DNA of 64,000 nucleotides from Candidatus Arcticimaribacter forsetii (lineage in GTDB: Bacteria > Bacteroidota > Bacteroidia > Flavobacteriales > Flavobacteriaceae). Made by a program: the position numbers and the translations under genes. The notes beneath the pieces were generated by a model. That model was not told where the DNA came from and did no database searches. It saw only the letters and a program-made list of their open reading frames with translations. Shown here one piece after another: positions 49,277-64,000 of this stretch. Every line of letters starts with the position of its first letter. Positions within the stretch are counted from its first letter, which is position 1. The stretch spans positions 1,849,501-1,913,500 of the forward strand of contig NZ_OU342399.1 of NCBI RefSeq assembly GCF_910589745.1, read 5' to 3'.

Positions 49277-50002
49277 TTATTTTTTGTTGAATTGTAATAT
49301 ATAATCCAAACCTTTAACCAAAAAATTCGGATGGGCAAATATGGGGTTTTTTAATCGTTTAGACAACTGCAAGCAGTCTCCTCCTGTTAAAATTATTGTT
49401 AAATTCTCATTTTTTTGTCTAAAAAATTCAATTTGACCTTCAATTTCATGTAAAATACCATTAAAAACACCTGCCTGAATGGATGTTTTTGTATCGTCTC
49501 CAATAACATCAGTAAAAGTTTCATTTTCAACAAGAGGTAGTTTCCCCGTAAAAGTATTTAAGCTTTTATAACGCATAGTATAACCTGGGGATATCATACC
49601 TCCCACGTAAGTTTGATCTTCTTTTATTAGATCATAGGTAATACAACTTCCCAAATCGATTACTAAAACATTAGAATTAGGATACTCCTTAACTGCTGCT
49701 GCAATTAATCCTATTCGATCTGCACCTAAAGTTTCAGGTGTTTTGTATGAATTTATGAAAGGAAGCTTCCAGGTACTATCTAAAATAAAAATATTTTTAG
49801 GGTCAAAAATTGTGTTTAAAAAACTCCAATCTAAGCCTTGGACATCACAAATTAATATTGAACTAATTTTTTCGAACTCTTCATAAATTCTTTTAAAAGT
49901 CTGAATATTAGGCTCAATATGTTTTGTTAAAAGCATTTCACCTTTACTAAATAAAGCAAGTTTAACAGAGGTGTTTCCCGCATCGACAATCAAATTTATC
50001 AT
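49277..50002 (-). CDS. coaX: Type III pantothenate kinase
   Basis: A 241-residue acetate/sugar kinase-fold enzyme making 4'-phosphopantothenate. It begins MINLIVDAGNTSVKLALF, with LGADRIGLIAAA near residue 92, VIDLGSCITYD near residue 114 and GGMISPGYTMR near 134. It heads the operon coaX, barrel protein, TPR, lptC, small protein, CorC-like, and lies next to tRNA-Phe on the opposite strand. Confidence 0.95.
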   Translation of the reverse strand: MINLIVDAGNTSVKLALFSKGEMLLTKHIEPNIQTFKRIYEEFEKISSILICDVQGLDWSFLNTIFDPKNIFILDSTWKLPFINSYKTPETLGADRIGLIAAAVKEYPNSNVLVIDLGSCITYDLIKEDQTYVGGMISPGYTMRYKSLNTFTGKLPLVENETFTDVIGDDTKTSIQAGVFNGILHEIEGQIEFFRQKNENLTIILTGGDCLQLSKRLKNPIFAHPNFLVKGLDYILQFNKK

Positions 50003-50096: not shown

Positions 50097-50169
50097 GGTA
50101 CCTTAGCTCAGTTGGTAGAGCAATGGACTGAAAATCCATGTGTCCCTGGTTCGATTCCTGGAGGTACCA
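50097..50169 (+). tRNA. tRNA-Phe (anticodon GAA)
   Basis: A 73-base tRNA with acceptor GGTACCT/AGGTACC (50097-50103 with 50162-50168), discriminator A50169, D arm (GCTC-AGTTGGTA-GAGC), anticodon stem ATGGA/TCCAT around CTGAAAA, and T arm with GGTTCGATTCC. No encoded CCA. Its 3' end serves as integration site for the elements downstream. Confidence 0.98.
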
Positions 50170-50171
50170 CT
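50149..50171 (+). repeat. attL: tRNA-Phe 3' end, copy 1 of 3
   Basis: This 23-base block, from the T-loop to two bases past the discriminator, is identical to 57629-57651; its last part, CTGGAGGTACCAC, is also found at 56266-56278. It forms the left boundary of the integrated elements and restores the tRNA. Confidence 0.85.
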
Positions 50172-50175
50172 ACCC

Positions 50176-50219
50176 AAAACCCGTAATCCCTTATAAACAA
50201 AGGGGTTTCGGGTTTTTTT
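50176..50219 (+). terminator. Intrinsic terminator after tRNA-Phe / element 1 left end
   Basis: AAAACCCG (50176-50183) pairs with CGGGTTTT (50209-50216), with a second inner stem AATCCCTT/AAGGGGTT, followed by T7. It should stop the tRNA transcript before the integrase gene. Confidence 0.8.
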
Positions 50220-50239
50220 ACACCCTTAAACTACAAAAA

Positions 50240-50259
50240 GGTACTAATTAGGGTACTAA
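50240..50259. repeat. Left arm-type integrase sites
   Basis: Two copies of GGTACTAA at 50240-50247 and 50252-50259, 12 bp apart, between the tRNA terminator and the integrase. They are the reverse complement of the right-end repeat TTAGTACC, as expected of arm-binding sites on both sides of an attP. Confidence 0.6.
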
Positions 50260-50306
50260 ATTGAGGAATTTTTCGTATACTAGTATAGTAAAAAAGGTAC
50301 GAAAAA

Positions 50307-51962
50307 ATGGGACTTTATTACCGATTAGACCACAAGAAAACCACCCCCCAACTTCTTCATAGTAAGGATGTTAGGGTGGTTATAGACTACTACTATAATG
50401 GAAAAAGAACCAAGATTTCTACGAACGTTTCTTGTTTAGTTAAAGATTGGGATAAAAAATGGAGAGATAAAACCTCCAAAAACCCAATAAAAACAACAGA
50501 TAAGAACCATAGGGTAAAGAACTTACTTATTAGAAATAAGTTAGATGAGATAAATGGTATTATACTCACCATCCAAAAACAAGATAAAGAACCCATAGTA
50601 GAACTCGTAAAGAGTTATTTACGAAAGGAAAGAAAGGAAAGAAAGGAAAAGAAAGACGATACACACAAAGAACTCCATTTTTTACCCCTCTTCACAGAAT
50701 ACGAAAAATGGATTAAAGGAGAGTATAACCCCCAAAGAGATAGTACCAAAAGAGGGGTTATGAGTAGTATTAAACAGATAATAGAATACACCACCCATTA
50801 CCAAAATAAAAACAATACACTCCTTTTTCCTGATGAGATAGATAGGGATTGGGTATATGGATATATCAAGTGGAGCTATGATACAAAAGGATTAAAACCC
50901 TCTACAATAAACAAAAGAATAAAAGTACTCTCCAACTTTTCCTCTTGGAGTAAAGAAAAATACAATACCTCCTTCCAAATAAGAAAACCCCAAAATGTTT
51001 ATTTAGGAAATGACGAAAACCTTGATATAGTTTTTCTTAAACGTGATGAGGTTATTAAACTCCACAAATACGATAAGTTTTGTTTTACCAATACAGAACA
51101 CGAAAAGATACTCACTAAAGAAAAAAGGTTGAGTTATATTTTAGATAAGTGGAAAAGAAAAGATGGAAAAGAAAAAGAGGTTAAATACACCACTTTTGAG
51201 GTATATAAAGATATGTTGTTATTCCTCTCCAACGTAGGTTGTAGATGGGGAGATATGATTAAAATGAAAGTGAGTGATATAGTTTATGATGATAAAACAG
51301 ACCCTGTTTTAGGATATAAAAGGGGTATGATTACCTTTTATATGGAAAAAATAAGACAACAAAGGGAACCCGTTAAAGTACCAAGAAATAGGTTAGTTTA
51401 TGAGATATGGAGGAAATACTCCAACGGAAAACACGGACAACACTACCTTTTCCCGAGAACCGAATTAGGAAATAGTATATCCAACAATAAGTTTAATAAG
51501 TATATAAAAGACGTTTGCAGAATAGTAGGGTTAAACAGAGAGATAAACCAACGTGATTGGGATTTGGTAGGTACAATAGAAAAAACCGAAAGATTACCCC
51601 TGTGGAGTTTAGTTTCTTCCCATATTGGTAGAAGAACGTTTGTACGGGAACAAATAGAAAGAGGAGTGCCAACTCGTATAATACAAAGTATGACGGGACA
51701 CAAAAGTAGAAAGGTATTTGATATGTATTATGAGGTACTTGATAAAGAAAAAACCCTCGTAAATGATGACTTGTTTTTAGATTATGAGGAAATCAATACA
51801 CCCCCAAAAACCTCCACAAATAAACCTCCACAAAAAACCCCTTCCCCCTTTTCCAAAGAACAAAAAGATAAAATAGAAAAACTTAAATACTCCCTTGATG
51901 AAGGGTGGATTGACCAAAATAAGTTTGATGAACTCTTCCAAAAAATAGTAGTCGGTGATTAA
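50307..51962 (+). CDS. Tyrosine recombinase / site-specific integrase
   Basis: A 551-residue recombinase. The N-terminal part reads as an arm-binding domain (VVIDYYYNGKRTKISTNVSC); residues about 140-225 are SAM-like core binding; the catalytic domain follows with Arg in GCRWGDMIKMK near 312, HxxR in SSHIGRRTF near 440, His in MTGHKSRKVF near 466, and nucleophile Tyr in MYYEVLDKE near 474. The set R-HxxR-H-Y is complete, so it should be active. Codon use (many CCC, ACC, CTC and AGA) differs from core neighbours. Confidence 0.93.
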   Translation: MGLYYRLDHKKTTPQLLHSKDVRVVIDYYYNGKRTKISTNVSCLVKDWDKKWRDKTSKNPIKTTDKNHRVKNLLIRNKLDEINGIILTIQKQDKEPIVELVKSYLRKERKERKEKKDDTHKELHFLPLFTEYEKWIKGEYNPQRDSTKRGVMSSIKQIIEYTTHYQNKNNTLLFPDEIDRDWVYGYIKWSYDTKGLKPSTINKRIKVLSNFSSWSKEKYNTSFQIRKPQNVYLGNDENLDIVFLKRDEVIKLHKYDKFCFTNTEHEKILTKEKRLSYILDKWKRKDGKEKEVKYTTFEVYKDMLLFLSNVGCRWGDMIKMKVSDIVYDDKTDPVLGYKRGMITFYMEKIRQQREPVKVPRNRLVYEIWRKYSNGKHGQHYLFPRTELGNSISNNKFNKYIKDVCRIVGLNREINQRDWDLVGTIEKTERLPLWSLVSSHIGRRTFVREQIERGVPTRIIQSMTGHKSRKVFDMYYEVLDKEKTLVNDDLFLDYEEINTPPKTSTNKPPQKTPSPFSKEQKDKIEKLKYSLDEGWIDQNKFDELFQKIVVGD

Positions 51963-52032
51963 AATACCCTCTCAGACTTAAGAAGATTTATGATTACTTG
52001 CATACCACAAATTTCTTCGCTACCTTCACCCT

Positions 52033-52182
52033 ATGAAGGTTAAAGTTTCCTCTCTTACTCACCATCCAAAGAACAAAGAAATCTACACCCTATCCTATAT
52101 AGAGGAACTGATGGAAAACATCTCAGAGGTTGGATTATTACAACCTCTAATTATTGATTCTCAATATTTTAATTTTATTTAA
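52033..52182 (+). pseudogene. Truncated ParB-like N-terminal domain
   Basis: A 49-residue frame beginning MKVKVSSLTHHPKNKEIYTL and continuing to ELMENISEVGLLQPLIID, then an unrelated SQYFNFI and stop. The pattern (hPxN, then EL..SI.E.GLLQPLII) is the start of the ParB/sulfiredoxin nuclease domain; the expected G-x-R-R segment is lost. In Bacteroidota mobile elements this domain is frequently fused to a DNA methyltransferase, and a methyltransferase tail occurs at 57862. It sits 70 bases after the integrase. Confidence 0.7.
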
Positions 52183-52282
52183 TTGAGTGTAAGAGGAAAT
52201 TTTTCATCACTGTCAGGATTATTTAAATAATTAATAATATAATCCTCATAGTTTTCTCTATCTTCCGGCTGAAAAAAACTCT
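52183..52282. other. Spacer between ParB fragment and nuclease-like gene
   Basis: 100 bases, AT-rich, with no start, terminator or repeat that I can support. It is probably the scar where the rest of the ParB gene was replaced. Confidence 0.4.
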
Positions 52283-52891
52283 ATGACTTATCTGAATATA
52301 ATTAAGAAGTCTTGCGACAAGATAATTATCCAAAATAATAATGAAGAGAAGTATCTAAATGAAAAGTCAGTTCAAATGAAACTTGCTATTGATATTTGGA
52401 AAGAAAAAAATATTGAACTTGAACTTGAAAAATGTTTTAACTATAAATCAATTGATAAAACCTACACCGATATTTTCATTAAAGACTATATTAAAATTGG
52501 TATTGAAATTAAATTTAAAACAAGAAAAGTTGAGGGTCATAAATATATAAATCAGGGAGCACAAACAAATGGAAAACTTAATTCTCTTATAGATATAAAA
52601 AGACTCCTGGATCTTAAGAAGAAAAAGGAGATAGACTCGGGATATTTTATATTTATATCTAATGACTACCTATATTGGAAAAAAAGTAGAATTGGGAAAA
52701 CAAATTCTCATCAATATAGTTTTGAAAATGAAAAAAAATTAAAAACAAAATTTGAAGAACCAAATTGGTCATCAAGAACTTATTCTGATGAAATTGATTT
52801 AACAGAAATTAAGACTGAAAAAATATTATGGAATGGAAAAAATAATGGAGTAAATAAAAATTCTTTTAGATATTTTGTTGTTGAAGTTTAA
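52283..52891 (+). CDS. Predicted PD-(D/E)XK nuclease-like protein
   Basis: A 202-residue soluble protein not assigned to a named family. It has an N-terminal acidic helix (NEKSVQMKLAIDIWK), then TDIFIKDYIKIGIEIKFKT, which gives Asp63 and Glu75-x-Lys77 on adjacent strands, as in restriction-endonuclease folds; GAQTNGKLNSLIDI follows as a Gln-containing helix. It is convergent with the next gene and follows the ParB fragment. A restriction or repair nuclease is inferred from motif and place, not from homology. Confidence 0.55.
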   Translation: MTYLNIIKKSCDKIIIQNNNEEKYLNEKSVQMKLAIDIWKEKNIELELEKCFNYKSIDKTYTDIFIKDYIKIGIEIKFKTRKVEGHKYINQGAQTNGKLNSLIDIKRLLDLKKKKEIDSGYFIFISNDYLYWKKSRIGKTNSHQYSFENEKKLKTKFEEPNWSSRTYSDEIDLTEIKTEKILWNGKNNGVNKNSFRYFVVEV

Positions 52892-52908
52892 ATTTTTAAT
52901 TACATAAA

Positions 52909-53496
52909 TTAATTTTTCTTAAAGGAATCTATAAATTCAATATAATTTGAAACTAGAAGGGTTTCTAACTCTAATAACTTATTGTGAAATTTTTCTAAAT
53001 AAAAATCATCCAAATTAGATTCATCCCAATCAAACTCCTCTTCAATATCTTCAATATCTTCATATTGGTTAATACCATATACAAATGATCCACTAGGATT
53101 ATATGATTCTTCTTCAAAAGTTCCTTTTAAATAACAATCTGAATCAATTTTTTGAAGATCATCTCTCAAAAATGATATAAAATTTTTGGGTAACCACCAA
53201 GCTGATCTAATTACTATATTACAAAACTCTGGATTGTCATCATGATTATACTCTACATATAACCATTTAGGTCCAATATATTTTTCCCAAATTTTATTGT
53301 TTGGATAATCAACCTCTCTATTCCATCCATCTTTTTCATCAGAAAAACAATAATTTGTCCCTTCTATATTATTGATTATATCTAAAGATGTAGTTTCATA
53401 ATTTCCCTTTTTACGATTAAATATTTCATTTAGACGTATAGGAACTTTTGGATTTTTTGATACCACAGTTAGAAAAGTTCTCATTTCGTTTGCCAT
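52909..53496 (-). CDS. Api92-like (DUF1281-type) protein
   Basis: A 195-residue acidic protein. GPKWLYVEY (near residue 73), then IRSAWWLPKNFISFLRDDL and KGTFEEESYNPSGSFVYG resemble the ferredoxin-like fold of Api92/DUF1281 proteins found on phages and plasmids, where a KWxYVE, SAWxxP, and YxExxxxFxG order is common. Function of the family is unknown. It is the last gene of a minus-strand run from 55061. Confidence 0.5.
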   Translation of the reverse strand: MANEMRTFLTVVSKNPKVPIRLNEIFNRKKGNYETTSLDIINNIEGTNYCFSDEKDGWNREVDYPNNKIWEKYIGPKWLYVEYNHDDNPEFCNIVIRSAWWLPKNFISFLRDDLQKIDSDCYLKGTFEEESYNPSGSFVYGINQYEDIEDIEEEFDWDESNLDDFYLEKFHNKLLELETLLVSNYIEFIDSFKKN

Positions 53497-53526
53497 GTGA
53501 AATCAAAATTTTAATCTTTAAACAAA

Positions 53527-54000
53527 TTATTTGATTTCCTCATACATACCTTTTTCCTCACTCCATCTTACTATCATTTCCTCATCAGTCAAAATTGAAA
53601 TCGATTTGTATTCCATAAAATCTTTTTCCCATTTATTCTGAAGATCCATAAGGATGTTCTCTAGTTTTTTGGATTCCTCATCAGTAAGTCTATCTTTAAA
53701 AATATGAAGATGATTTTTATCAGACATATCTCCAAAAACAGTCCATAAAAATGGAATAATTTTCTGAATATCAACTTGGAAACTAGATCTATCTCTAAAT
53801 GAAACTTCTTTAAATTCATTCTCTTTCCAACTAATTATAAAATCATTTAATAATTGATTTGGATTTGGACCATCTGTTCTTGTAAATTTTTTGTTTTTTC
53901 TAAGTAATTCAAATTCACATAATACTACGATTTGAAAATCTGAGAAATTTTGGAAATACTCAAAATCACTTTTTTTTGGTGGATTATTATATTTTTTCAT
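53527..54000 (-). CDS. Uncharacterised protein
   Basis: A 157-residue soluble protein with no recognisable domain. It is rich in charged residues, with an aromatic-rich N-terminal helix (SDFEYFQNFSDFQIVVLCEF) and a C-terminal acidic helix (EEMIVRWSEEKGMYEEIK). It sits 30 bases before the Api92-like gene and 13 after the paralogue-family gene, so likely one transcript. Confidence 0.55.
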   Translation of the reverse strand: MKKYNNPPKKSDFEYFQNFSDFQIVVLCEFELLRKNKKFTRTDGPNPNQLLNDFIISWKENEFKEVSFRDRSSFQVDIQKIIPFLWTVFGDMSDKNHLHIFKDRLTDEESKKLENILMDLQNKWEKDFMEYKSISILTDEEMIVRWSEEKGMYEEIK

Positions 54001-54013
54001 AATTTTTTTTGGG

Positions 54014-54427
54014 TTATCTTATCATAAACATATCTTCATCAACCAAAAATAATTGTAAATCTTTTATTTTAAGGGTTTCAGAATAATTTTTTATTGAGAA
54101 TTCATATTTCATTTTATGTCCCCCAAAACCAAGATTTAAATCACTTATACAGAAAAATATTCCATTATTATCAATGTTACTTATTAAGATATGGTGATAG
54201 GTAAAAAAAGTTTTTTTCTTAGTTTGATCCGTTCTTTTTTTTTCCCAATAGATATCTGAAATTTTATATTTTCTTCTTTGGTGTTTTAACTCTTTACCTC
54301 TTTTTCTAAAATATCTTTCTTTTTCTCTTTCTGACACAGGTAACCACTCTAATTTTCCATGTAAATCAAAATTTGATTCAGAAAAAAACTCTGAAATAAT
54401 AAATTTTAGTAAATTATGATAATTCAT
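54014..54427 (-). CDS. Uncharacterised protein, paralogue of the one at 61711-62118
   Basis: 137 residues from the ATG at 54427. Shared with the second copy are L-x-G-x-LEW-x-P, KER-x-F-x-K-x-GKELK-x-Q, the KYKI block, HH-x-x-I-S-x-I, and a final M-x-MIR. The middle block is highly basic, the HH pair could bind metal or act in catalysis, and the end is hydrophobic. No named family is recognised. The two copies lie in different integrated segments. Confidence 0.65.
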   Translation of the reverse strand: MNYHNLLKFIISEFFSESNFDLHGKLEWLPVSEREKERYFRKRGKELKHQRRKYKISDIYWEKKRTDQTKKKTFFTYHHILISNIDNNGIFFCISDLNLGFGGHKMKYEFSIKNYSETLKIKDLQLFLVDEDMFMIR

Positions 54428-54439
54428 ATTATACAATAT

Positions 54440-54646
54440 ATGTCTTTTTTTGAATTTATAGATCAATTAATTTATATAATCAAAAACCTAGGAATCTCCT
54501 TTTGGATTTCAGTAATCTTAGTTTCTCCTCTCTTTATGATTTTTGAAGAATTGGTGCAAAATATAATAACTAAAATTTTATATATAGTGGAGTGTATGGA
54601 CAATCCATGCAAGTGTTTTCTGTTATTTGATAACCAGTTATATTAA
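54440..54646 (+). CDS. Possible small membrane protein or acyltransferase remnant
   Basis: A 68-residue frame starting MSFFEFIDQLIYIIKN with one strong hydrophobic segment (FWISVILVSPLFMIFEELVQN). That segment resembles the C-terminal end of acyltransferase-3 membrane proteins. Its 3' 77 bases run antisense into the lipoprotein gene. It may be a remnant; a true small gene is not excluded. Confidence 0.25.
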   Translation: MSFFEFIDQLIYIIKNLGISFWISVILVSPLFMIFEELVQNIITKILYIVECMDNPCKCFLLFDNQLY

Positions 54647-55061
54647 GTGGGGGTTCATCATCAAATATATCGGTAAGATAGATAGTATACTCACCAACAG
54701 GAACTGGATTGTTAAACTCTTCATCAGTAAACCAACTAAGTACTGAGTAAACAGGAATTGTAAAACTCAAATTGTTAATCCAAACCCAATAATTTGAATC
54801 AAAAATGGTTTCTACTAAAGGAACTCCATTAATAACATACTTCTCATGTAGTTCATCAAGTTTTCCTTTTACGGTGAAATACTTAAATCCTTGATAGGAC
54901 ACTCTCCAATAACCATTACTATCTAGATATGAACTATAAGGAACATCTACATAAAATACCGAATCACATTTTCCATCCTTACAAGGGTAAAAAATTGGTT
55001 CGTCTAATTTGGAACACCCGATTAAAGTGGATAAAAACAGAAGTATGTAGATATATTTCAC
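54570..55061 (-). CDS. Lipoprotein of unknown function (element 1)
   Basis: A 163-residue protein with signal peptide and lipobox LIGC (Cys16), then CKDGKCDSVFYVDVPYSS, and a late Cys pair in NTCMDCPYTP. No family recognised. Four cysteines after the lipidated one suggest disulfides in the periplasm. It is the first gene of the minus-strand run that continues with the 54014 paralogue. Confidence 0.6.
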   Translation of the reverse strand: MKYIYILLFLSTLIGCSKLDEPIFYPCKDGKCDSVFYVDVPYSSYLDSNGYWRVSYQGFKYFTVKGKLDELHEKYVINGVPLVETIFDSNYWVWINNLSFTIPVYSVLSWFTDEEFNNPVPVGEYTIYLTDIFDDEPPLNITGYQITENTCMDCPYTPLYIKF

Positions 55062-55131
55062 ATATTAAATTTACAAAAAATCATTTTTCAATTTTACCCT
55101 ATCATTTTCCAAAGGGAAAAAAATTGACTCC

Positions 55132-55300
55132 GATATAAAAACCACCCCGATTAGGGCATAGGGGGAAGTACTTTCTCAGTTACGAGAAACTTCATCCTGT
55201 AAATACTGATACATTATTCAATTCAAAAGTTTTTAAGAGAGTCTATCAAATCTTCTCAACACTTCATTCTGATACACTTTGATTATTTAACCTCTTAACT
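55132..55300. repeat. ~170-bp dispersed repeat, copy A
   Basis: Nearly identical to 61256-61426, with a long perfect core around GATACATTATTCAATTCAAA. It covers the last codons and stop of the HTH gene (NQSVSE end) and the region after it. It contains TTTCTC-N6-GAGAAA, a short hairpin. Confidence 0.8.
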
Positions 55301-55476
55301 TTAATATTCCCTTTCAGACTATTTTCCCACTCTAATAAATCCTTTTCTGTAATGTATTTTGAATGAGTAGAGACTTCAATCATTTTCAATCCTCTATTTC
55401 TTCTCCAATCTTCTATGGTTACTCTATCTACTCCATAGAGTTCCATTAAATCCTTTTTACTCAATCTTCTCTCCAT
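55264..55476 (-). CDS. Excisionase-like helix-turn-helix protein
   Basis: A 70-residue protein. LSKKDLMELYGVDRVTIEDWRR (split at residue 5-26) is a winged HTH of the MerR/HTH_17 type, followed by STHSKYITEKDLLEWE. Such proteins act as excisionase or plasmid control factors beside tyrosine recombinases. The C-terminal KRLNNQSVSE is encoded by repeat A. It overlaps the upstream 64-residue gene by about 20 bases. Confidence 0.7.
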   Translation of the reverse strand: MERRLSKKDLMELYGVDRVTIEDWRRNRGLKMIEVSTHSKYITEKDLLEWENSLKGNIKVKRLNNQSVSE

Positions 55477-55651
55477 ATACTTTAATCTCCTCTTTTTCTA
55501 AAAGTTCTTTAAACTTCTTGCTATAGGTTTCTCTATCTCCACTTATTCTGTACTTCTCAATCTTATGGTAGAAGTTCTTAATCAATTCTGATTTCTTTTT
55601 TAGAATATCTACCATGTGTCTTGCTTGTTCATCTGTTATATTTCTTAACAT
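55457..55651 (-). CDS. Small helical protein next to HTH gene
   Basis: A 64-residue charged, helical protein (NITDEQARHMVDILKKKS...) of no known family. Its stop overlaps the HTH start, which suggests translational coupling and a joint role in element control. Confidence 0.5.
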   Translation of the reverse strand: MLRNITDEQARHMVDILKKKSELIKNFYHKIEKYRISGDRETYSKKFKELLEKEEIKVYGEKIE

Positions 55652-56139
55652 ATTATTTCCTTTCAGAGTATTTTAAAAAACAGTAATAACCTCGTACTCT
55701 AAATACTTAATCAGTTCGAGGTTGATACTCTTTATTATAAACTTTTATAATATTTAAAACTCATCTAATACTTCACAATTAGATATAGTGAGTCCATTAA
55801 GGGAAATTCCCTTTTAAAAAACTATTCCCATTTTTCAGTTGAATCTAACAGATACTCAAACAAGAATTCAACCTATCTGCATTTTAACGAGTTCAGACCT
55901 TTCTTATTTACCTCTCGGAACACTAATGACTGGTTTTACCTATCGGTGAGTGTTGGTCATTATCGGGCACTTCCCCCATGTGTCAGGTGTAGTATCTCGG
56001 TAGATTAAGTATTTCTTAAAGTAATCTACAACTCAGTAGAACAATTGGTTCTATATATAAGTATTAGAAACTTTAGAAAACGTAAAAAAATGTGAGAAAA
56101 AGGATGAAAATAACTTCTGCCAAATCTAACAGAGGTTGT
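55652..56139. other. Non-coding region, right part of element 1
   Basis: About 490 bases without a credible gene. AACCTCG (55688-55694) and CGAGGTT (55717-55723) form a hairpin with a 22-base loop. The stretch 55890-55990 is less AT-rich than its surroundings and could carry an RNA or a regulatory site, but I recognise no family. It is the likely control region for the divergent ends of the element. Confidence 0.4.
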
Positions 56140-56214
56140 TAGTACCCAGAGTTTAGTACCCAAAGGATTTTGATAGTACCCAAAAGGTACTTAAATTAGT
56201 ACCCACGGGTACTA
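56140..56214. repeat. Right arm-type repeats: TAGTACCC cluster
   Basis: TAGTACCC occurs at 56140-56147, 56154-56161, 56174-56181 and 56197-56204, and as its inverse GGGTACTA at 56207-56214; the last two form an inverted repeat with a 2-base centre. The cluster ends about 50 bases before the att copy at 56266, as expected of integrase arm sites. Confidence 0.65.
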
Positions 56215-56265
56215 TTTTTATTTATAACCTATTGTAAATCAGTATATAAAAATATGGTCTTGGTA

Positions 56266-56278
56266 CTGGAGGTACCAC
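56266..56278 (+). repeat. att copy 2: 13 bases of the tRNA-Phe 3' end
   Basis: CTGGAGGTACCAC, identical to 50158-50170 and to 57638-57650. Sequence before it does not match the tRNA, so it is a recombined site and not a tRNA gene. Right end of element 1 and left end of element 2. Confidence 0.75.
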
Positions 56279-56281
56279 CAT

Positions 56282-56318
56282 CCCTAACTAATTGATATTA
56301 AATTAGTTAGGGTTTTTT
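56282..56318 (+). terminator. Intrinsic terminator after att copy 2
   Basis: CCCTAACTAATT (56282-56293) and AATTAGTTAGGG (56301-56312) form a perfect 12-bp stem, followed by T6. It has the same position relative to att as at the other two copies, but a different sequence. Confidence 0.88.
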
Positions 56319-56477
56319 ATTTAGTAATATTTAGTACTCGAACTACTCACATAACTATTTGTTTTTCAATGTATTAATAATTTGAGTTGTTCTTTGACTC
56401 AAAAATTGAATAATGGATAGTTTATATAAAGAATTTTTATTTACTTTATAAAGTAAATTTATTTTAAAATTTGAATA

Positions 56478-57509
56478 ATGAAACTATCTATTAAATCTAT
56501 ACTCGTACTAATATTTTCAGTAATTATCACAAGTTGTTCATCGGATGATGGTGGTGATGAAATGGTTACACCTACTCCTCAAGAAACTTTTGGTAATTGG
56601 TCACCTGATTTTACAAATCAGACTTCTAATTTTACTCAAACTAGAACAGGTTCTCAAGGAACTGAACAAACAAGAACAATTAATGTTACTTCCTCCTCAA
56701 ATACAACCTCTTCTACAGAAGAAATTTTAGAGGAAGATATTAATGAAGATGGTGACTTATTTGAAGATATTGAAGTCATTACAATAACATATACAGGTTC
56801 TGAAAACCTTGGAAACCACCAGATTATCTCACATGAGGTTTTAGTAGATAATGATATGGAATTAAAAGTCGGGAATGATACTTGGTCCTTATCTAATGGA
56901 CATATTATGGATTATGGTAATGATTTCGTGTGTTCTGGTGAAGAAAGATATCATAATCTAGATCTTGTTTTGTACAGTGAAGGAAAGAGTCCTGACACTG
57001 ATGGATATACTTCAGGAGATGGTGTTGAAATCTCTCTCTTTTTATATCCCTCTGAATCAGAAATTGTTCCAGGTAATTATATGAATTACTTAGAATTTTG
57101 GAATTCAAACTCAACTATTTTAAATTCTACATTCGATAGTTACAACGAATTAATAGAATTTTTAGGGGATTTAGATGATGAATCAGAAGAAGGTTTTGAA
57201 CAAAAATTTTGTGAAATTTCTGAAACAAGTTTTTTAAGTTATGTTGAATGGGGGGAGTATGAAAATAACGGTAACACCACGAGTGATGGAGATGAATTGG
57301 ATATTTCAAACTCCAATTTAAGTATTGAAATATCCGATAGTAATGTTTACACAATAAAATTTGAAGGATGTTTTACTAAAACTAATTTACCTTTAAGTTT
57401 CTATTACAAGGGATATCTAGGATATTACGATAAAACATATACCGAATCTGGGAATGGTGATAAATCCTCGTCAAAACCAAAAAATACAAATTTGTTTTTT
57501 AATAAATAG
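56478..57509 (+). CDS. Lipoprotein of unknown function (element 2)
   Basis: A 343-residue lipoprotein with lipobox IITSC (Cys20) followed by SSDDGGDE, the acidic form seen in Bacteroidota surface lipoproteins. Residues 40-80 are low complexity (Thr, Ser, Gln, Asn). The remainder is acidic and beta-rich with Cys near 152, 242 and 295. No family recognised. As the only gene of its segment it is the cargo. Confidence 0.65.
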   Translation: MKLSIKSILVLIFSVIITSCSSDDGGDEMVTPTPQETFGNWSPDFTNQTSNFTQTRTGSQGTEQTRTINVTSSSNTTSSTEEILEEDINEDGDLFEDIEVITITYTGSENLGNHQIISHEVLVDNDMELKVGNDTWSLSNGHIMDYGNDFVCSGEERYHNLDLVLYSEGKSPDTDGYTSGDGVEISLFLYPSESEIVPGNYMNYLEFWNSNSTILNSTFDSYNELIEFLGDLDDESEEGFEQKFCEISETSFLSYVEWGEYENNGNTTSDGDELDISNSNLSIEISDSNVYTIKFEGCFTKTNLPLSFYYKGYLGYYDKTYTESGNGDKSSSKPKNTNLFFNK

Positions 57510-57533
57510 TTAGTTGTTCTTTATAAAATTCTA

Positions 57534-57584
57534 TTGTTCTTATTAAGAACAACTTAGAGTACAAATATGTTCTTTTTAAGAACA
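57534..57584. repeat. GTTCTT/AAGAAC palindromes
   Basis: Two inverted repeats: TTGTTCTT-ATT-AAGAACAA (57534-57552) and TGTTCTT-TTT-AAGAACA (57568-57584). A further single GTTCTT half-site lies near 57515. They lie 45-115 bases before att copy 3. They may be binding sites for a recombinase or repressor; poor T-tails argue against pure terminators. Confidence 0.5.
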
Positions 57585-57628
57585 ACATGTTTTTGTAACT
57601 AATTGTTTGTCAATAATATATGTGTATC

Positions 57629-57651
57629 GTTCGATTCCTGGAGGTACCACT
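57629..57651 (+). repeat. att copy 3: 23 bases of the tRNA-Phe 3' end
   Basis: Identical over 23 bases to 50149-50171, from the T-loop to two bases past the tRNA end. The 5' tRNA part is missing. This is the outermost boundary of the tandem integrations that I can identify. Confidence 0.88.
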
Positions 57652-57654
57652 TTT

Positions 57655-57686
57655 AAACCCTTTAAATCATTGATTTAGAGGGTTTT
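57655..57686 (+). terminator. Intrinsic terminator after att copy 3
   Basis: A 15-bp stem with one G-T wobble joins 57655-57669 (AAACCCTTTAAATCA) to 57671-57685, followed by TTTTGTCTTTT. It could be the original chromosomal terminator of tRNA-Phe or that of an older element. Confidence 0.75.
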
Positions 57687-57704
57687 GTCTTTTCATACAC
57701 CTCC

Positions 57705-57770
57705 TTGTGTAAAGTTTTGTGTAAAGTTATACGGTTCTTTTTTGTATCTTTGGTACTCATTGTGTAAAGT
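57705..57770. repeat. Three TTGTGTAAAGT direct repeats
   Basis: Copies at 57705-57715, 57717-57727 (12 bp apart) and 57760-57770. The position, just after the terminator following an att site and with a 12-bp phase, parallels the left arm sites of element 1. Confidence 0.6.
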
Positions 57771-58026
57771 ATGACAATAAATCTTGTACCATTATTTAGA
57801 AAGAAAAAGGAACTTTATCTACCTGAAGATGAGGTTACTATTCTTGTAAGATTATTTAGGAGAACATCCCGCTCCTTTCCCTGAAGAAATAATCACTCTA
57901 CCTATTCTTCAAACTTCAAAAGAGTTTGAATTGGTATTAGATCCTTTTATGGGGAGTGGAACTACAGGTAGAGTTTGTGATAAGTTAGGAAGAAGTTTTG
58001 TGGGGTATGATTTGAACTCATTTTAA
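57771..58026 (+). pseudogene. Fusion of integrase-like N-terminal stub and DNA methyltransferase tail
   Basis: From the ATG at 57771 the frame reads MTINLVPLFRKKKELYLPED and then EVTILVRLFRR, which resembles a recombinase arm-binding domain, and stops at TGA after 37 residues. In the next frame, from 57862, EHPAPFPEEII and LVLDPFMGSGTTGRVCDKLG, then GRSFVGYDLNSF, are the C-terminal motifs of an N6/N4 DNA methyltransferase (DPFxGSGTT binds AdoMet). The two halves are out of frame, so a deletion joined two gene ends. Confidence 0.65.
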
Positions 58027-58680
58027 AATAATATAAGTTGAATCCTTAAAAACTTTTTCTCCTATAATTTCAAAAAATTTTGACCCATCTTCTTTTTGAG
58101 TTATTGAATGAGTATAAGTCATTTTAATTTTCATTGTATCTCCAACCATTTCTTGAATAGGAGAAATTACAGTATTAACAATTCCAGTTTTTTCATCAGT
58201 ATATGAACTCTTGTTGATCGTGGGGACTATGATATCACTCCAGTTAAGAAGGGGAGGTAGATTAACGTATACTAATTCTCCAGTAAATAAATTAAGGTAG
58301 GTTTTTGTAATGTTTGCAACAGTTTCTCCTTCAAATAACCACCAATATAGATTAGACTCCCAATTAACCATTTTAGGTTGAGTACCACTCCACGAATCTT
58401 CAATAGGTTTTCCGTTTCTTAAAAGAACTCCTGTAATTCGTTGAATGGTTTGATTTTTTGATCTATCTAAATTTAATTCATAATATCCATCAATGTTTTT
58501 AGACAACTGAAATCTTGGATCATCGTTTAAACCGTCAATAAAATGAATTTGGATACCTTGACCATCGTCTGTAATAATACTTTCATTCTCACAAGAAAAC
58601 AAAAAAAGAATTGACAAAACTCCTAACCAAAAAAATAAATTCTCTTCTGCTCCACAATATTTCAAATTTAATTTGATCAA
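58018..58680 (-). CDS. Probable lipoprotein of unknown function
   Basis: A 220-residue protein. The frame starts at TTG (58680) and has a hydrophobic stretch ending in LFLFSC (Cys30) followed by ENESIITDDGQG, a lipobox with acidic linker. The rest is beta-rich with several Trp (WSGTQPKMVNWESNLYWWLF). No family recognised. Its 3' end overlaps the methyltransferase remnant by 9 bases. Confidence 0.6.
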   Translation of the reverse strand: MIKLNLKYCGAEENLFFWLGVLSILFLFSCENESIITDDGQGIQIHFIDGLNDDPRFQLSKNIDGYYELNLDRSKNQTIQRITGVLLRNGKPIEDSWSGTQPKMVNWESNLYWWLFEGETVANITKTYLNLFTGELVYVNLPPLLNWSDIIVPTINKSSYTDEKTGIVNTVISPIQEMVGDTMKIKMTYTHSITQKEDGSKFFEIIGEKVFKDSTYIILK

Positions 58681-58703
58681 AATGGGAATTTGTTTGTTGA
58701 ATA

Positions 58704-58813
58704 ATTAATACCCAGCATCTTTTAATCTTTTTATAACATCTTTTCCACATTCTTCACAACTTCCTTTTCTAACTGATTCAAGTCTTACAAATGATGGATA
58801 TTCAGTACCTAAT
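58704..58813 (-). pseudogene. Remnant of a small zinc-ribbon-like gene
   Basis: The frame read on the minus strand gives LGTEYPSFVRLESVRKGSCE, then ECGKDVIKRLKDAGY and a stop, with an in-frame TGA just before and KECKIKY-like sequence further upstream. A CxxC pair is visible. It follows yidD and has no start codon of its own. Confidence 0.35.
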
Positions 58814-58846
58814 CAAATTTTATATTTGATCTTACATTCTTTAAAA

Positions 58847-59056
58847 TTAAACAGGGTCATATCCACCTCGAGATCCATGTCTACACCTGAAGATTCTTTT
58901 AAGTCCTAATTTTGTTCCATTATATAATCCGTATTTAACAAGACTTTGAATAAAATATTCTGAACAAGTAGGGTTAAAAATACAACTACTATAAGGTTTG
59001 AAAGGAGAAATATTCTTTTGATAGAAACGTATAAATTTTATTAATACTGATTTCAA
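58847..59056 (-). CDS. yidD: Membrane protein insertion efficiency factor YidD
   Basis: A 69-residue protein with the family pattern [12 protein letters not shown], then [15 protein letters not shown] and [12 protein letters not shown]. YidD helps YidC insert membrane proteins. It starts with TTG directly after the stop of the zinc-ribbon gene, with no spacer, so it depends on translational coupling. Its place in a non-core region suggests a second, accessory copy. Confidence 0.9.
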
Positions 59057-59353
<297 letters not shown>

Positions 59354-59605
59354 TTTAATTTAATTTAGTGTTAATACAAAATGAATATAGTATTTTAATT
59401 GAAATTAAAAAAAAAATGTTAATAGATTTATGTAATTTATTAGTTAAATTTAGTTGCATCGTATTAATAGTACTTTACAACATATGAAAACAGTAAATTG
59501 AAGAATCTGAACTCAAAAAACTAAAAGTACTCTTTGATAAAGAGTTGATACCCGAAAAGTAAACTTGAAGATTAATATTAAGTATTTAAATAAAAATAAA
59601 AATTT

Positions 59606-60064
59606 ATGATTAAACACAAACCTAATAACCTTTGGGAAGAAATAAGACCTTTATTTAACTATGTTGGAAAATATCACAAAAATAAATTAGATAAAGTCGA
59701 TCTTGAATACGAAAGAGGACTCAAATCAAAAGTCTCAGAAAACGGTCTAATTTATGTTTTAATTGTTGATGATTATATAAAGTATATTGGAGAGTCCAAA
59801 AGATACAGTAGACCTCTTAATTACCACAAAAACAATGTAATGAAAGATGTTAGAGAAGGAATTAAAAAAGAAGTTTTATACAACAATAAAGAGGTCAAAG
59901 TCTATATATATGAACCTTCAAAACAAAAAACATTCATTTTAAAAGAGAATGATGATAAATTTGAATTTAATGATATAAATCTTTATAAATCAATTGAATC
60001 GTACTGGATAAAACTAAATAATGAACAAGAAAATAAAGGTCATTGGAATAATAAGATGTATTAA
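59606..60064 (+). CDS. GIY-YIG-like domain protein
   Basis: A 152-residue protein. GLIYVLIVDDYIKYIGESKR (near residues 47-66) provides the GIY and YIG strands, with an Arg after, and SIESYWIKLNNEQENKGHWN near the end supplies the Glu and Asn typical of the GIY-YIG nuclease core. A nuclease role is possible; the family spans repair, homing and restriction enzymes. Confidence 0.6.
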   Translation: MIKHKPNNLWEEIRPLFNYVGKYHKNKLDKVDLEYERGLKSKVSENGLIYVLIVDDYIKYIGESKRYSRPLNYHKNNVMKDVREGIKKEVLYNNKEVKVYIYEPSKQKTFILKENDDKFEFNDINLYKSIESYWIKLNNEQENKGHWNNKMY

Positions 60065-60084
60065 TTATTTAATAAAATTTGAAT

Positions 60085-60465
60085 ATGGAATTTATAGATA
60101 TAAAAGAGTTACCATTTTTAATATCAGTCGATTTACTCTATCCTGATAATTCATCAAAAAGAGTCCCAGGGGATTATGGTGTAATGAATTATGATCAAGC
60201 AAACAAACTTGTAAGTAAGATGAAGGATGGTTCAAGATTACCAAACAATGAAGAATTAAAATTAATACATAAATATCGAGAGAAAATACCTAATCTTAGC
60301 ATAGGGGATTCTTATTGGTCTTCCGAAAACTCAACAGAACCTGACTTCATTTACGGAAAAAAAGGAACTGCTTATTCAATGACCTTGTCTAGTGGTATCT
60401 TTTTAAAGGGTGGTCGAGGTGCGAGGAATAAATGTCTTGTGAAATTAGTTAAGGATAAATCTTAA
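60085..60465 (+). CDS. Lcl/FISUMP (DUF1566)-like domain protein
   Basis: About 126 residues from the ATG at 60085. SRLPNNEELKLIHKYR, then DSYWSSENSTEPDF and a final RNKCLVKLVKD resemble the C-terminal domain of Legionella collagen-like and Fibrobacter paralogous proteins, whose order is LPT.EEL, YWSS, and a final VRCV. No signal peptide is present, so it probably acts in the cytoplasm, unlike most relatives. Confidence 0.5.
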   Translation: MEFIDIKELPFLISVDLLYPDNSSKRVPGDYGVMNYDQANKLVSKMKDGSRLPNNEELKLIHKYREKIPNLSIGDSYWSSENSTEPDFIYGKKGTAYSMTLSSGIFLKGGRGARNKCLVKLVKDKS

Positions 60466-60578
60466 TCAAATCGAACTGATTTAAATATAATTAAAGGTCC
60501 ATTTTTTTATTTACAACTACTATCATATTCAACATTTTTAATAATGATAAATATTCTTTGAATTATAAAAAAAATATT

Positions 60579-61235
60579 ATGAAATTTCGACTTATTATGA
60601 GTGGAACTTGTTTTGATGGATCTGCACATATACTTTCAAATGATGAAGTTTTAAAAATCAACAACTTCAAAACAAAAAACGACTATTCTTCACTAGAAGA
60701 GATGTATTCCGAATTGTCTACAATACTTGGAGAAGAAAACTATATTGCTGATTTACTTACCAACTATTGGATAAATAAAACTTCAATTAGTAATTCTAGT
60801 CTCAATTTTATCCTTTTAGATGGAAATGATAATCTTATCTGGAGGTCACAAGAAATTCTTAATTTAATTGATACTCCTTGGGATGAAAAAGTTCCTGATG
60901 AAATATATGAACATATAGATACTCCAGTATTAGAATCATATATTCCATCAGGTAATCCAGAATGTGATGCTTATCCTTGCGATAAAAGACCTAATATTCT
61001 TTTTTACTATCAAGAATTAAAAGGCACCCTAATTAGTTATTCAATAGAATCTGACACAGAACCTAAACCAGAAGAATTTTCTCACACATGTATTACACTG
61101 GAAACACCTAATGAAGAAATAGAATTAGTGAATAATGTACTTTATAAAACTCAAATACTTCAAAGAGAATACGAATATGAAGATTTTAGAGGAAAAAATT
61201 TAACTGTTAAATTGTTTACTTTGAAAGATGTTTAA
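60579..61235 (+). CDS. Uncharacterised protein
   Basis: 218 residues from the ATG at 60579 (a TTG at 60558 is less likely). An acidic soluble protein with FRLIMSGTCFDGSAHI at the start, a NPECDAYPCDKRPNI Cys pair near the middle and an LYKTQILQREYEYEDF end. No family recognised. It is the third of three plus-strand genes that may be separate cassettes. Confidence 0.5.
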   Translation: MKFRLIMSGTCFDGSAHILSNDEVLKINNFKTKNDYSSLEEMYSELSTILGEENYIADLLTNYWINKTSISNSSLNFILLDGNDNLIWRSQEILNLIDTPWDEKVPDEIYEHIDTPVLESYIPSGNPECDAYPCDKRPNILFYYQELKGTLISYSIESDTEPKPEEFSHTCITLETPNEEIELVNNVLYKTQILQREYEYEDFRGKNLTVKLFTLKDV

Positions 61236-61255
61236 AAACTCTTTATAATCTAATA

Positions 61256-61426
61256 GATATAAAAACCACTCCGATACCCATTTTAGGGAAAAAGTATTTT
61301 CTCAGTTACAAGAAACCTCATCTTTGAAATACTGATACATTATTCAATTCAAAAGTTTTTAAGAGAGTCTATCAAAACTTCTTATTCCTTCATTCTGATA
61401 CACTTTGATTAATTAACCTCTTAACT
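61256..61426. repeat. ~170-bp dispersed repeat, copy B
   Basis: Matches 55132-55300 with few differences and encodes the same C-terminal NQSVSE and stop for the gene at 61390. See copy A. Confidence 0.8.
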
Positions 61427-61605
61427 GCAGAATAAATGACGGACATCCCTTTGTTCCAACGATTGTAACTATAAGCAGCCACATTCTTTACAACGAAAGT
61501 TTCCTCATTTTCAATAAACTTTCTAAGTTCAGAGTGAGAATAAGTTTCTTCAACGTTGAATTTAGAATCAAACAGTTTTACTATTTCAAAATATTTTTCA
61601 TCCAT
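61390..61605 (-). CDS. Small protein sharing C-terminal residues with the HTH protein
   Basis: A 71-residue protein (MDEKYFEIVKLFDSKFNVEE start) with no clear HTH. Its final KRLINQSVSE is almost the same as the KRLNNQSVSE of the unrelated protein at 55264, because both stop codons lie in the repeat. Residues NVAAYSYNRWNKGMSVIYSAV may bind nucleic acid. Confidence 0.5.
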   Translation of the reverse strand: MDEKYFEIVKLFDSKFNVEETYSHSELRKFIENEETFVVKNVAAYSYNRWNKGMSVIYSAVKRLINQSVSE

Positions 61606-61710
61606 AATATGTTTATAAAATTTAATGTGGTTATGAGATAATCTATGATTAAAATCTGAAATAAAAGTCGATTTTATTCACGAAACCTTTAATAATAATG
61701 AAATAAATTC

Positions 61711-62118
61711 CTACCTAATCATTATCATTCTCTTATCTAATAATTCGTATTTACATTTTGAATAATCCGATAAATTCAAATAATCAATTATTTTAAATTT
61801 ATATCTAAATGTTTGTCCCATTCTTTCAACTTTATGATCATTCATAATGTAAAATACACCATCTTTTTCAATTTCACTGATAACAATTTGGTGGTGTGAT
61901 GAAACGTTATCATCTTGGGTTTTTCCTTCCCAAAAAACCTGTTTAATTTTATATCTACTTTTTTGAGGTTTTAATTCCTTCCCAAACTTTTTAAAATGTC
62001 TTTCTTTCTGTTTTTCCGTTGTAGGGTACCATTCTAAACTCCCTTTTAAAGTAAAAATATGGTTTGGGAAAAATTGAATAATTAATTCTTCAAGTAATTC
62101 ATCTAATTTAATTTTCAT
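61711..62118 (-). CDS. Uncharacterised protein, paralogue of the one at 54014-54427
   Basis: A 135-residue protein that aligns along its full length with the element 1 copy: LKGSLEWYPTTEKQKERHFK, then GKELKPQKSRYKI, SSHHQIVISEI and a final MIMIR. It starts 40 bases after the DUF2779-like gene and probably shares its transcript. The repeated pairing of this family with different neighbours suggests a movable module. Confidence 0.65.
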   Translation of the reverse strand: MKIKLDELLEELIIQFFPNHIFTLKGSLEWYPTTEKQKERHFKKFGKELKPQKSRYKIKQVFWEGKTQDDNVSSHHQIVISEIEKDGVFYIMNDHKVERMGQTFRYKFKIIDYLNLSDYSKCKYELLDKRMIMIR

Positions 62119-62158
62119 ATAAAACCCTGTATTTTAAAAGAAACTTTTCTCCCCATAA

Positions 62159-64000
62159 TTATTTAGTTTTTTCTAAAAAATGTTCAAATATCATAACCAT
62201 TGCCATGGTGTCTAATTCACAATACTTCAATAATGACTTTCTAATACTCTCTTTTAAATTTTGATCTAAATCACCAAATTGAAGATATGCGTACGCTGTC
62301 ATAGCGGCACCACCATCATTAATTGTACTAAATGATAAATTTTCTCCGTTTAGATAACCTACATAATCATCATTTATATTTGAGAAAACTGGAGGTAAAC
62401 TTTTATAGGGATCCAATTCCTTATCATTTAACCATGAATGATTAGAAAAGTTTTTAGATGGAATTTGATTTGTACCATAAATTGGTTTCGAATACTTAGT
62501 TTTTAGAAATGAAGAATCATTGATCACCGATGGTAAAATATATTTTATACTGTTTGAACCTTTAGAATATGGAGAATAATAAAGAGAAACAATTAATTTA
62601 TACAAATCAACCATATTGTTCTTTGTAGGTTTCCACTCTCCTCTATTACCTCTTGTAGGTTGAGAAATCTCTTTAATAAAATCAATTAATTCATTTCTAT
62701 CTGGAACCTCAATAGAAGACTCATTAATTAATTGAGTGTAAATTTTATTGAGTATGGTATTTTCATGATTATGATACCTAAATATCGTTCCTTTCAAATT
62801 TGGAGAAAACTCATTCTTTAATGATCTAATAAAACTATAATTAGGGAACTCTGGATTGGTGTTTAAATATTCTCCTTTATGTTCAATTTTATCATCATCA
62901 TAAAGGTGGTAGGAATATTGAAAAGCAACTGATTCATAAGGTGATCTATTTTTATGAAATGGTATAGCCACTCCACTAGTTTCAAAATCAATAAAATGAT
63001 ATGGTTTTTCTAATCCTTGTATAACATCACTCAAATATTCATGATAGTAAGGAGTATTATCCCTCTCTTTATCTTTTTTTATCTGAATGTATTGTCTGAA
63101 TGAAGTCGACATTCCATTTTCATCCTCAACTTCATTATCAATATATTCTTCTTCGTTGACTTGATCGATTAAAAAATTCCCTTTATCAGTCTCTTTTTTT
63201 GTAGCTCTCCAAATCCTTTCAACCAAGTTAGATTCTTCATCGAGATTGTAACCAGAATTTTTAAAACATTCGTGAAATCCACTTTTCAATCCAAAAAAGG
63301 AATCATTTCTGTATTGACACTTGAAACAATCATGATCTATTTTTTTCCAATCTCTAATCTTCTGTTTGTATAATTTTGAAAGATACTCAATATGATTTTC
63401 AAAACTATTTTTTCCTATTTTCTCCTTCTCAATGAAATCACAGACTTGATCTACATTGATGACTTTTAAGGGTAATTTTCCAAGCTCAGTAATATTTAAG
63501 TCACCGCTTACCTCAACAGATTTTCTTCCATTTTTATTACTGATTTTAAAATACTGATTTAAACCGTCAATAGAAGTTTTCGAAAGTTTATCTGCCAAAA
63601 CAAGGTGAGTATTTATTTTCATTGAAGGAAATAGATTCCGAACAACATATCTTTGAAAGGCTATATCATAAAGATAAAACTTCCAATTAGGATCAATTTT
63701 CCTTTTACCCTCATTTTCTCCTCTTTTATACTCTTTTATAAATACCTTAAATTCTTGGTCATCCACACTTTCATACCCCCAAGACTTTGATTTTACCTCG
63801 TAAATATCGATTTCATTACCCTTCTTTTGGAGAAGATCAACCCTAACAAAAAGATTATTGAATAAAAAAGCAGGTTCAGCAATTGAAACTTCTTCATTTT
63901 CTAATTTGTGATTAGTCAACTTGACAGATTCAACATAATCTAGACTTTCAACAGTTATGTCATCGATATATGGATTATCAGAAATTAAAAATTTTGCTAA
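62159..64000 (-). CDS. DUF2779-type protein, putative Cas4-like plus DEDD nuclease (cut by window edge)
   Basis: The frame is open to the right edge (at least 613 residues), so an internal TTG near 63919 is not the start. The first third has FVRVDLLQKKGNEIDIYEVK, an Asp-x(n)-Glu-x-Lys pattern as in Cas4/PD-(D/E)XK nucleases, with later Cys (CFKCQYR and HECFKN) that could bind Fe-S. The C-terminal part starts with HFIDFETSG and ends with YCELDTMAMVMIFE, an RNase-H-like DEDD exonuclease pattern known as DUF2779. Function in cells is not known. Confidence 0.7.
   Translation of the reverse strand, partial: LAKFLISDNPYIDDITVESLDYVESVKLTNHKLENEEVSIAEPAFLFNNLFVRVDLLQKKGNEIDIYEVKSKSWGYESVDDQEFKVFIKEYKRGENEGKRKIDPNWKFYLYDIAFQRYVVRNLFPSMKINTHLVLADKLSKTSIDGLNQYFKISNKNGRKSVEVSGDLNITELGKLPLKVINVDQVCDFIEKEKIGKNSFENHIEYLSKLYKQKIRDWKKIDHDCFKCQYRNDSFFGLKSGFHECFKNSGYNLDEESNLVERIWRATKKETDKGNFLIDQVNEEEYIDNEVEDENGMSTSFRQYIQIKKDKERDNTPYYHEYLSDVIQGLEKPYHFIDFETSGVAIPFHKNRSPYESVAFQYSYHLYDDDKIEHKGEYLNTNPEFPNYSFIRSLKNEFSPNLKGTIFRYHNHENTILNKIYTQLINESSIEVPDRNELIDFIKEISQPTRGNRGEWKPTKNNMVDLYKLIVSLYYSPYSKGSNSIKYILPSVINDSSFLKTKYSKPIYGTNQIPSKNFSNHSWLNDKELDPYKSLPPVFSNINDDYVGYLNGENLSFSTINDGGAAMTAYAYLQFGDLDQNLKESIRKSLLKYCELDTMAMVMIFEHFLEKTK

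What the first reader, a model, noticed from the sequence alone, without database searches (positions are those of the whole stretch)
50149..57686. Three copies of the tRNA-Phe 3' end in a row, each with its own terminator
The 3' end of tRNA-Phe occurs at 50149, 56266 and 57629. Each copy is followed within 5 bases by a strong hairpin with T-tail, and the three hairpins have unrelated sequences. This fits stepwise integration of different elements that each bring a terminator right next to attP, so that the strong tRNA promoter does not read into the element. The terminator as a conserved functional part of attP is not commonly described.
Basis: partly seen in the sequence, partly recalled or inferred. 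Interest (0 to 1): 0.65.

Follow-up and report, generated by a model that had tools for sequence, protein, structure and literature searches.

The report
Integrated elements carry their own tRNA terminator
Three mobile elements inserted one behind another at a bacterial tRNA gene each brought a copy of the tRNA's tail followed at once by a transcription stop signal, and the same built-in stop signal turns up, at set distances, in most tRNA-adjacent elements sampled from related bacteria.

Summary
In detail: tRNA-Phe (50097-50170) plus two further 3'-end copies, at 56266-56278 (13 nt) and 57629-57650 (22 nt). All three are followed within 3-8 nt of the shared sequence by a strong intrinsic terminator. 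They are junctions of three nested elements, E1-E3. The native right flank (rmuC, etfBA) resumes 3 kb beyond the window, so T3 also belongs to an element, whose integrase is reduced to 29 codons. An empty site in G151 has one tRNA and one terminator; G166 carries an element with its own, different terminator and keeps the native one after the distal copy.

The pattern generalises. Nine of 10 close integrase relatives (next to tRNA-Phe, Met, Asp or Val) and 33 of 36 tRNA/tmRNA-adjacent integrases with an Arm-DNA-bind_5 domain (PF17293) have a terminator in the gap. Its position is set by the integrase class, it sits between core and arm-type repeats, and the stem shows compensatory changes. At paired junctions terminators are present on both sides (14) or on neither (2). 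Tandem accretion is known. The attP-borne terminator is a little-described variant, opposite to ICEKp1, which displaces the native terminator. Termination itself is untested.

The parts
49277..50002 (-). type III pantothenate kinase (coaX), conserved left flank of the tRNA-Phe site
   Evidence: TIGR00671 over cut-off; same cluster upstream of the tRNA in relatives
50097..50170 (+). tRNA-Phe(GAA), target gene; its last 12-13 nt form the shared att core
50178..50214 (+). terminator T1 of element E1, between core and arm-type repeats
   Evidence: -18.3 kcal/mol; compensatory G-C to A-U in the stem versus L165
50240..50259 (+). two GGTACTAA repeats 12 bp apart (putative integrase arm-type sites); a third, variant copy at 50291-50303
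50307..51962 (+). E1 tyrosine integrase, intact, 551 aa
   Evidence: PF00589 + PF17293 Arm-DNA-bind_5
52033..52179 (+). remnant of a DNA methylase gene (homologue follows the integrase in related elements)
   Evidence: 80-89% identity over 44-49 aa; full-length homologue is ParB_N + N6_N4_Mtase
56139..56208 (+). four (T/A)TAGTACCC repeats, inverted relative to 50240-50259: distal arm sites of E1
56266..56278 (+). second tRNA-Phe 3' end copy: right junction of E1 / left junction of E2
56282..56312 (+). terminator T2 of element E2
   Evidence: -14.9 kcal/mol; same 12-bp stem right after tRNA-Phe in G099/L065
56386..56394 (+). GTTGTTCTT repeat, left arm of E2; related copies at 57513-57586 on the right end
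56478..57509 (+). E2's only gene, predicted lipoprotein of 343 aa, no family hit; E2 has no integrase
57629..57650 (+). third tRNA-Phe 3' end copy (22 nt identical): right junction of E2 / left junction of E3
57655..57685 (+). terminator T3 of element E3
   Evidence: -15.3 kcal/mol; aligned with four element terminators of related species, two pairs with changes on both sides
57705..57771 (+). three TTGTGTAAAG repeats (first two 12 bp apart): arm-type sites of E3
57771..57857 (+). integrase N-terminus of E3, first 29 codons only, cut by a deletion
   Evidence: MTINLVPLFRKKKELYLPEDEVTILVRLF versus MSVYISPNLTKKKTDYKPSDKITIYLNYY
57850..58023 (+). remnant of the DNA methylase that follows the integrase in related elements
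   Evidence: 85-91% identity over 58 aa to L067/L071/L073

Best explanation
The locus is a tandem of three integrative elements at one tRNA-Phe gene. Each element's attP consists of the tRNA 3' end, then an intrinsic terminator, then paired arm-type integrase sites, then usually the integrase gene. Recombination in the tRNA's last ~12 nt splits the tRNA from its own terminator; the element restores both the tRNA 3' end and a terminator, so integration is roughly neutral for tRNA transcription and keeps the tRNA promoter out of the element. The incoming element always lands next to the tRNA, so older elements with their terminators are pushed outward (E1 youngest, E3 oldest and decayed). Shown by sequence: nesting, element ownership of the terminators, conserved position and pairing. 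Inferred: that the hairpins terminate transcription in vivo and that insulation is the reason they are kept.
For: (1) Empty versus filled site: G151 has tRNA + terminator + rmuC flank; G166 has tRNA + a different terminator + integrase, and at +6417 a second tRNA end followed by G151's terminator and flank. (2) Element terminators are near-identical in four species (L067, L071-L073) although two of those with known distal sites have quite different native ones. (3) T2 recurs in G099 without T1 or T3. (4) E3 starts with integrase and methylase remnants and the native flank lies at ~67069. (5) Generality: 9/10 close relatives of the integrase next to tRNA-Phe, Met, Asp, Val; 33/36 PF17293 integrases next to tRNA/tmRNA. 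(6) Position: for ~410-aa PF17293 integrases the hairpin ends +52 to +60 after the tRNA in 24/33, against 0/80 native-like tRNA-Phe sites; for ~550-aa integrases it fills the gap before arm repeats spaced 12 bp apart. (7) Compensatory stem changes. (8) Strong terminators upstream of 23/29 tRNA-adjacent versus 10/35 other integrases, p = 6e-5. (9) Paired junctions: terminator at both ends in 14, at neither in 2 (tRNA-Val L238, tRNA-Pro L253), no discordant case.
Against: Termination was not measured. The numbers in (5)-(9) are not phylogenetically independent. The 0/80 comparison uses native tRNA-Phe sites only, while the 33 are other tRNAs. Three of 36 PF17293 integrases and the tRNA-Val element lack a terminator. 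The right junction of E3 and its native terminator were not found, and T3's stem also resembles the native terminator of G151, so T3's element origin rests on context. In ICEKp1-type elements the native terminator is displaced and not replaced, so this is not a rule for all tRNA-targeting elements.
Confidence: 0.78

Rival explanations
1. The terminators were carried passively: elements picked up host DNA just downstream of a tRNA (tRNA end plus its terminator) by imprecise excision, and the hairpins are relics without function for the element.
For: Some element terminators resemble native ones: T3 and the G151 native stem, the two terminators of L158, and L143/L162, where the repeat includes the terminator.
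Against: Compensatory changes, a position set by integrase class and different from native sites, placement before arm repeats in elements targeting different tRNAs, and persistence across integrases of 36% identity argue for selection. Capture may still be how they arose.
Confidence: 0.12
2. The terminator serves the integrase: it blocks tRNA-promoter transcription of int so that excision stays rare, rather than serving the tRNA or host.
For: int lies 100-300 nt downstream, same strand, in most cases; in ICEKp1 tRNA read-through drives int and is attenuated by stem-loops (PMC13023037); upstream terminators are enriched at tRNA-adjacent integrases.
Against: In L093 and L100 the integrase is at the far end facing the tRNA, yet the tRNA-side terminator is kept (also present in L095, where no integrase was found in the stretch). 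E2 and G099 keep T2 without an integrase. Terminators are absent together at both junctions in two cases.
Confidence: 0.2
3. The hairpin is mainly a DNA feature of attP (bend or protein site in the core-to-arm spacer) and termination is incidental.
For: Fixed spacing before arm repeats, including one case without a terminator (L238 repeats at +57/+69); similar apical sequences in part of the ~410-aa class.
Against: A T-run follows nearly every hairpin; T1 and L165 differ in the upper stem while the lower stem pairs; two elements lack the hairpin altogether.
Confidence: 0.06
4. T3 is the native chromosomal terminator and only T1 and T2 are element-borne.
For: T3's stem resembles the G151 native terminator.
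Against: T3 is followed by arm repeats, an integrase N-terminus and a methylase remnant, not by the native rmuC flank, which starts at ~67069.
Confidence: 0.12

Closest known systems
Tandem accretion of ICE/IME/CIME at a shared att site (reviewed in PMC5704250)
   Same: Several elements with related att sites stacked at one tRNA 3' end; decayed members keep att sites but lose the integrase (E2, E3).
   Different: The review passages read describe att sites and gene content; here each att junction also carries a distinct terminator.
ICEKp1, ICEclc, ICEEc1 integrated at tRNA genes (PMC13023037)
   Same: Tyrosine integrase next to a tRNA gene; integration separates the tRNA from its native terminator, which ends up beyond the distal end.
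   Different: There the tRNA is left without its terminator and its promoter drives int (with stem-loop attenuation further in). Here a replacement terminator lies within a few nt of the tRNA.
KplE1/CPS-53 prophage at argW in E. coli K-12 (PMC2951348)
   Same: 16-nt core at the tRNA end, int downstream on the same strand.
   Different: No terminator between argW and intS by the same test; leuX-intB and ssrA-intA do have one.
Lambda-type attP (core plus arm sites, from general knowledge)
   Same: Core flanked on both sides by repeated arm-type sites that differ from the core; paired sites 12 bp apart at about +55 to +83.
   Different: The core-to-arm spacer holds a terminator hairpin; integrase binding was not tested.

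Membership tests
tRNA-targeting tyrosine-recombinase integrative element | Tyrosine recombinase gene with catalytic and arm-binding domains | tested here: met
   E1: PF00589 and PF17293 over cut-off; E3 has only an N-terminal remnant, E2 none
tRNA-targeting tyrosine-recombinase integrative element | Direct repeat of the tRNA 3' end at both element ends | tested here: met
   E1 and E2 yes; right end of E3 not found
tRNA-targeting tyrosine-recombinase integrative element | Empty site in relatives | tested here: met
   G151 versus G166 in the same genus; no empty site of the window's own species was available
tRNA-targeting tyrosine-recombinase integrative element | Excision and circular form | not testable with these tools
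   needs DNA from the strain
Tandem accretion array with CIME-like members | Stacked elements sharing att sites, some without integrase | tested here: met
   E1 intact, E2 without int, E3 truncated int
Integrative conjugative element | Relaxase or conjugation genes | tested here: inconclusive
   No Pfam hit for conjugation genes among ten proteins scanned at 50307-63919; not every ORF was scanned
ICEKp1-type promoter switching | Native terminator displaced and no terminator directly after the tRNA in the integrated state | tested here: not met
   T1 starts 7-8 nt after the tRNA end
Intrinsic terminator | Stable stem followed by a T-run | tested here: met
   termination itself not tested

The most novel reading that the evidence does not exclude
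In Bacteroidota a transcription terminator is a built-in, position-fixed module of attP in tRNA-targeting elements, held between core and arm-type sites, so that an element replaces both things it takes from the tRNA: its 3' end and its terminator. This 'replace the terminator' strategy is the counterpart of the 'displace the terminator and borrow the promoter' strategy of ICEKp1.
Probability: 0.6. Interest if true: 0.62.

Novelty: new variant of a known kind. Interest (0 to 1): 0.52.

Why it matters
It is well known that tRNA-targeting elements restore the tRNA's 3' end, but integration also removes its terminator. The data suggest many Bacteroidota elements solve that by carrying a terminator inside attP, at a spacing tied to the integrase class. 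This gives a practical signature for calling att sites in this phylum, explains arrays of 'tRNA tail plus hairpin', and makes a clear contrast with proteobacterial ICEs testable: insulated versus tRNA-driven integrase expression.

Tried and rejected
Rejected: one conserved three-hairpin locus (T2 and T3-type hairpins occur separately); island ending at 57.7 kb (native flank at ~67 kb); a further tRNA-end copy beyond 57650 (none in the genome). A shared apical sequence as a general terminator word of the genome was not supported: only 4 loose matches in 2 Mb, and the motif is present in only part of the ~410-aa class, so no claim is made. The genome-contig scan with a single protein gave only one relative. 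In one search the thousands of L075 rows are an artefact of a tRNA cut by the contig start and were ignored. Two E. coli look-ups were not useful: one missed ssrA and argU-intD has int on the opposite strand. The literature searches on attP/tRNA/terminator found no paper stating this arrangement as a rule; subscription papers, including early work on tRNA att sites, are not in that library.

Full report
OBSERVATION. tRNA-Phe(GAA) lies at 50097-50170. CTGGAGGTACCAC recurs at 56266 and 57638 (the third copy extends back to 57629, 22 nt) and nowhere else exactly in the 2.03-Mb genome. Hairpins with T-runs follow at 50178-50214, 56282-56312 and 57655-57685; none of 200 shuffles folded as well at any site.

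ANATOMY. E1 (50171 to 56278) has an intact 551-aa tyrosine integrase with an Arm-DNA-bind_5 domain, GGTACTAA repeats 12 bp apart just after T1, and four inverted TAGTACCC repeats before its right junction: a core with arm-type sites on both sides. E2 (to 57650) holds only a predicted lipoprotein gene; GTTGTTCTT-type repeats lie near both ends. E3 begins with T3, three TTGTGTAAAG repeats and 29 codons that match the N-terminus of related integrases, then jumps into the end of a DNA methylase gene which in L067, L071 and L073 follows the integrase. That methylase is ParB_N + N6_N4_Mtase. The native right flank, rmuC (PF02646) and the etf genes (named from general knowledge of the sequences), resumes at window coordinate ~67069 (L005). 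No tRNA-end copy remains there, so E3's right end is lost.

COMPARISON. One hundred tRNA-Phe regions from the family were read. G151 is an empty site: tRNA, one terminator, rmuC end. G166 has tRNA, another terminator, integrase, other genes, and at +6417 a second tRNA end followed by the G151 terminator and flank. G162 and G164-G166 share one element terminator type; at G166 and G164 the distal, native terminators are different from it and from each other. G099 has T2 right after its tRNA, with E2's left end but no integrase. Elements in L093 and L100 have the integrase at the far end, facing the tRNA, and still carry a shared terminator on the tRNA side; in L095 and L100 GGGACAACA repeats 12 bp apart follow it. 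So the terminator is not simply an integrase leader.

GENERALITY. Relatives of the window integrase at E<=1e-20 in 399 family genomes, plus one public contig, gave ten loci; all had a tRNA upstream (Phe, Met, Asp, Val) and nine had a terminator starting 4-11 nt after it. The tenth, tRNA-Val, has none at its distal junction either. PF17293 searches gave 87 loci, 36 of them behind a tRNA or tmRNA on the same strand; 33 have a terminator. In 24 of 33 it ends +52 to +60 nt after the tRNA, which none of 80 native-like tRNA-Phe terminators does (the comparison is limited to tRNA-Phe). Strong terminators occur upstream of 23/29 tRNA-adjacent integrases and 10/35 others. Where both junctions could be read, terminators were at both (14) or neither (2). 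G165 shows the same three-copy pattern at a tRNA-Met gene (0, +5997, +19670).

STRUCTURE. In the T3 family, 98.7% of cells pair, two pairs change on both sides, and slid controls pair at most 56%. T1 and its nearest relative (L165, integrase 92% identical) differ in the upper hairpin but keep the lower stem with a G-C to A-U change.

MECHANISM. Shown: nested elements; terminators belong to elements; their place in attP is set by integrase class. Inferred: they terminate tRNA transcripts, sparing the host's tRNA processing and keeping the tRNA promoter out of the element. The ICEKp1 study shows what happens otherwise: the native terminator is displaced and the tRNA promoter drives int (PMC13023037). 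E. coli K-12 has both arrangements: leuX and ssrA elements with a terminator before int, argW without (whether those two are element-borne was not tested).

KNOWN VERSUS NEW. Stacking of elements and integrase-less remnants at one att site is known as accretion and CIMEs (PMC5704250). A terminator as a regular, spaced part of attP was not found in the papers searched, a limited library. Verdict: a real and somewhat general feature, a new variant of a known kind.

Noticed in passing
attL of ~550-aa integrases: window 50240-50259, 57705-57728; L071, L073, L067, L095, L100, L239, L238: Element-specific arm-type repeats come in pairs exactly 12 bp apart, starting about +55 to +71 nt after the tRNA end, also in the one element without a terminator.
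   Followed up: partly
L196, L200, L275, L282, L309, L310, L312 and others, first ~22 nt after the tRNA: In the ~410-aa PF17293 class an imperfect palindrome of about 22 nt lies between tRNA end and terminator (e.g. CGTTCTgttatAGAACG in L310). Its role is unknown; it may be a core or excision-factor site.
   Followed up: no
L106 (G135), first ~640 nt after tRNA-Phe: Tandem units of about 92 bp, each with a tRNA 3' end, most with a terminator; L124, L143 and L162 have one such extra unit of about 120-180 bp.
   Followed up: no
L074 (G159), +1 to +221 after tRNA-Phe: A 221-bp miniature insert: element terminator, TGGTACACA arm repeats and a second tRNA end with its own terminator, no gene at all.
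   Followed up: partly
G000:C1:1313391 onward (L179, L241): A second PF17293 integrase in the same genome sits behind tRNA-Ser(TGA), with a terminator at +19 to +54; no distal repeat was found within 20 kb.
   Followed up: partly
G165 tRNA-Met (L239): Three tRNA-Met 3' ends in a row, each with its own terminator: an independent case of the finding.
   Followed up: partly
window 62159-63919 (-): 586-aa (or longer) protein with a DUF2779 domain in the decayed E3 region; function unknown.
   Followed up: no
window 54014-54466 and 61711-62118 (-): Two related small proteins, one in E1 and one in the E3 region, suggesting shared cargo between stacked elements.
   Followed up: no
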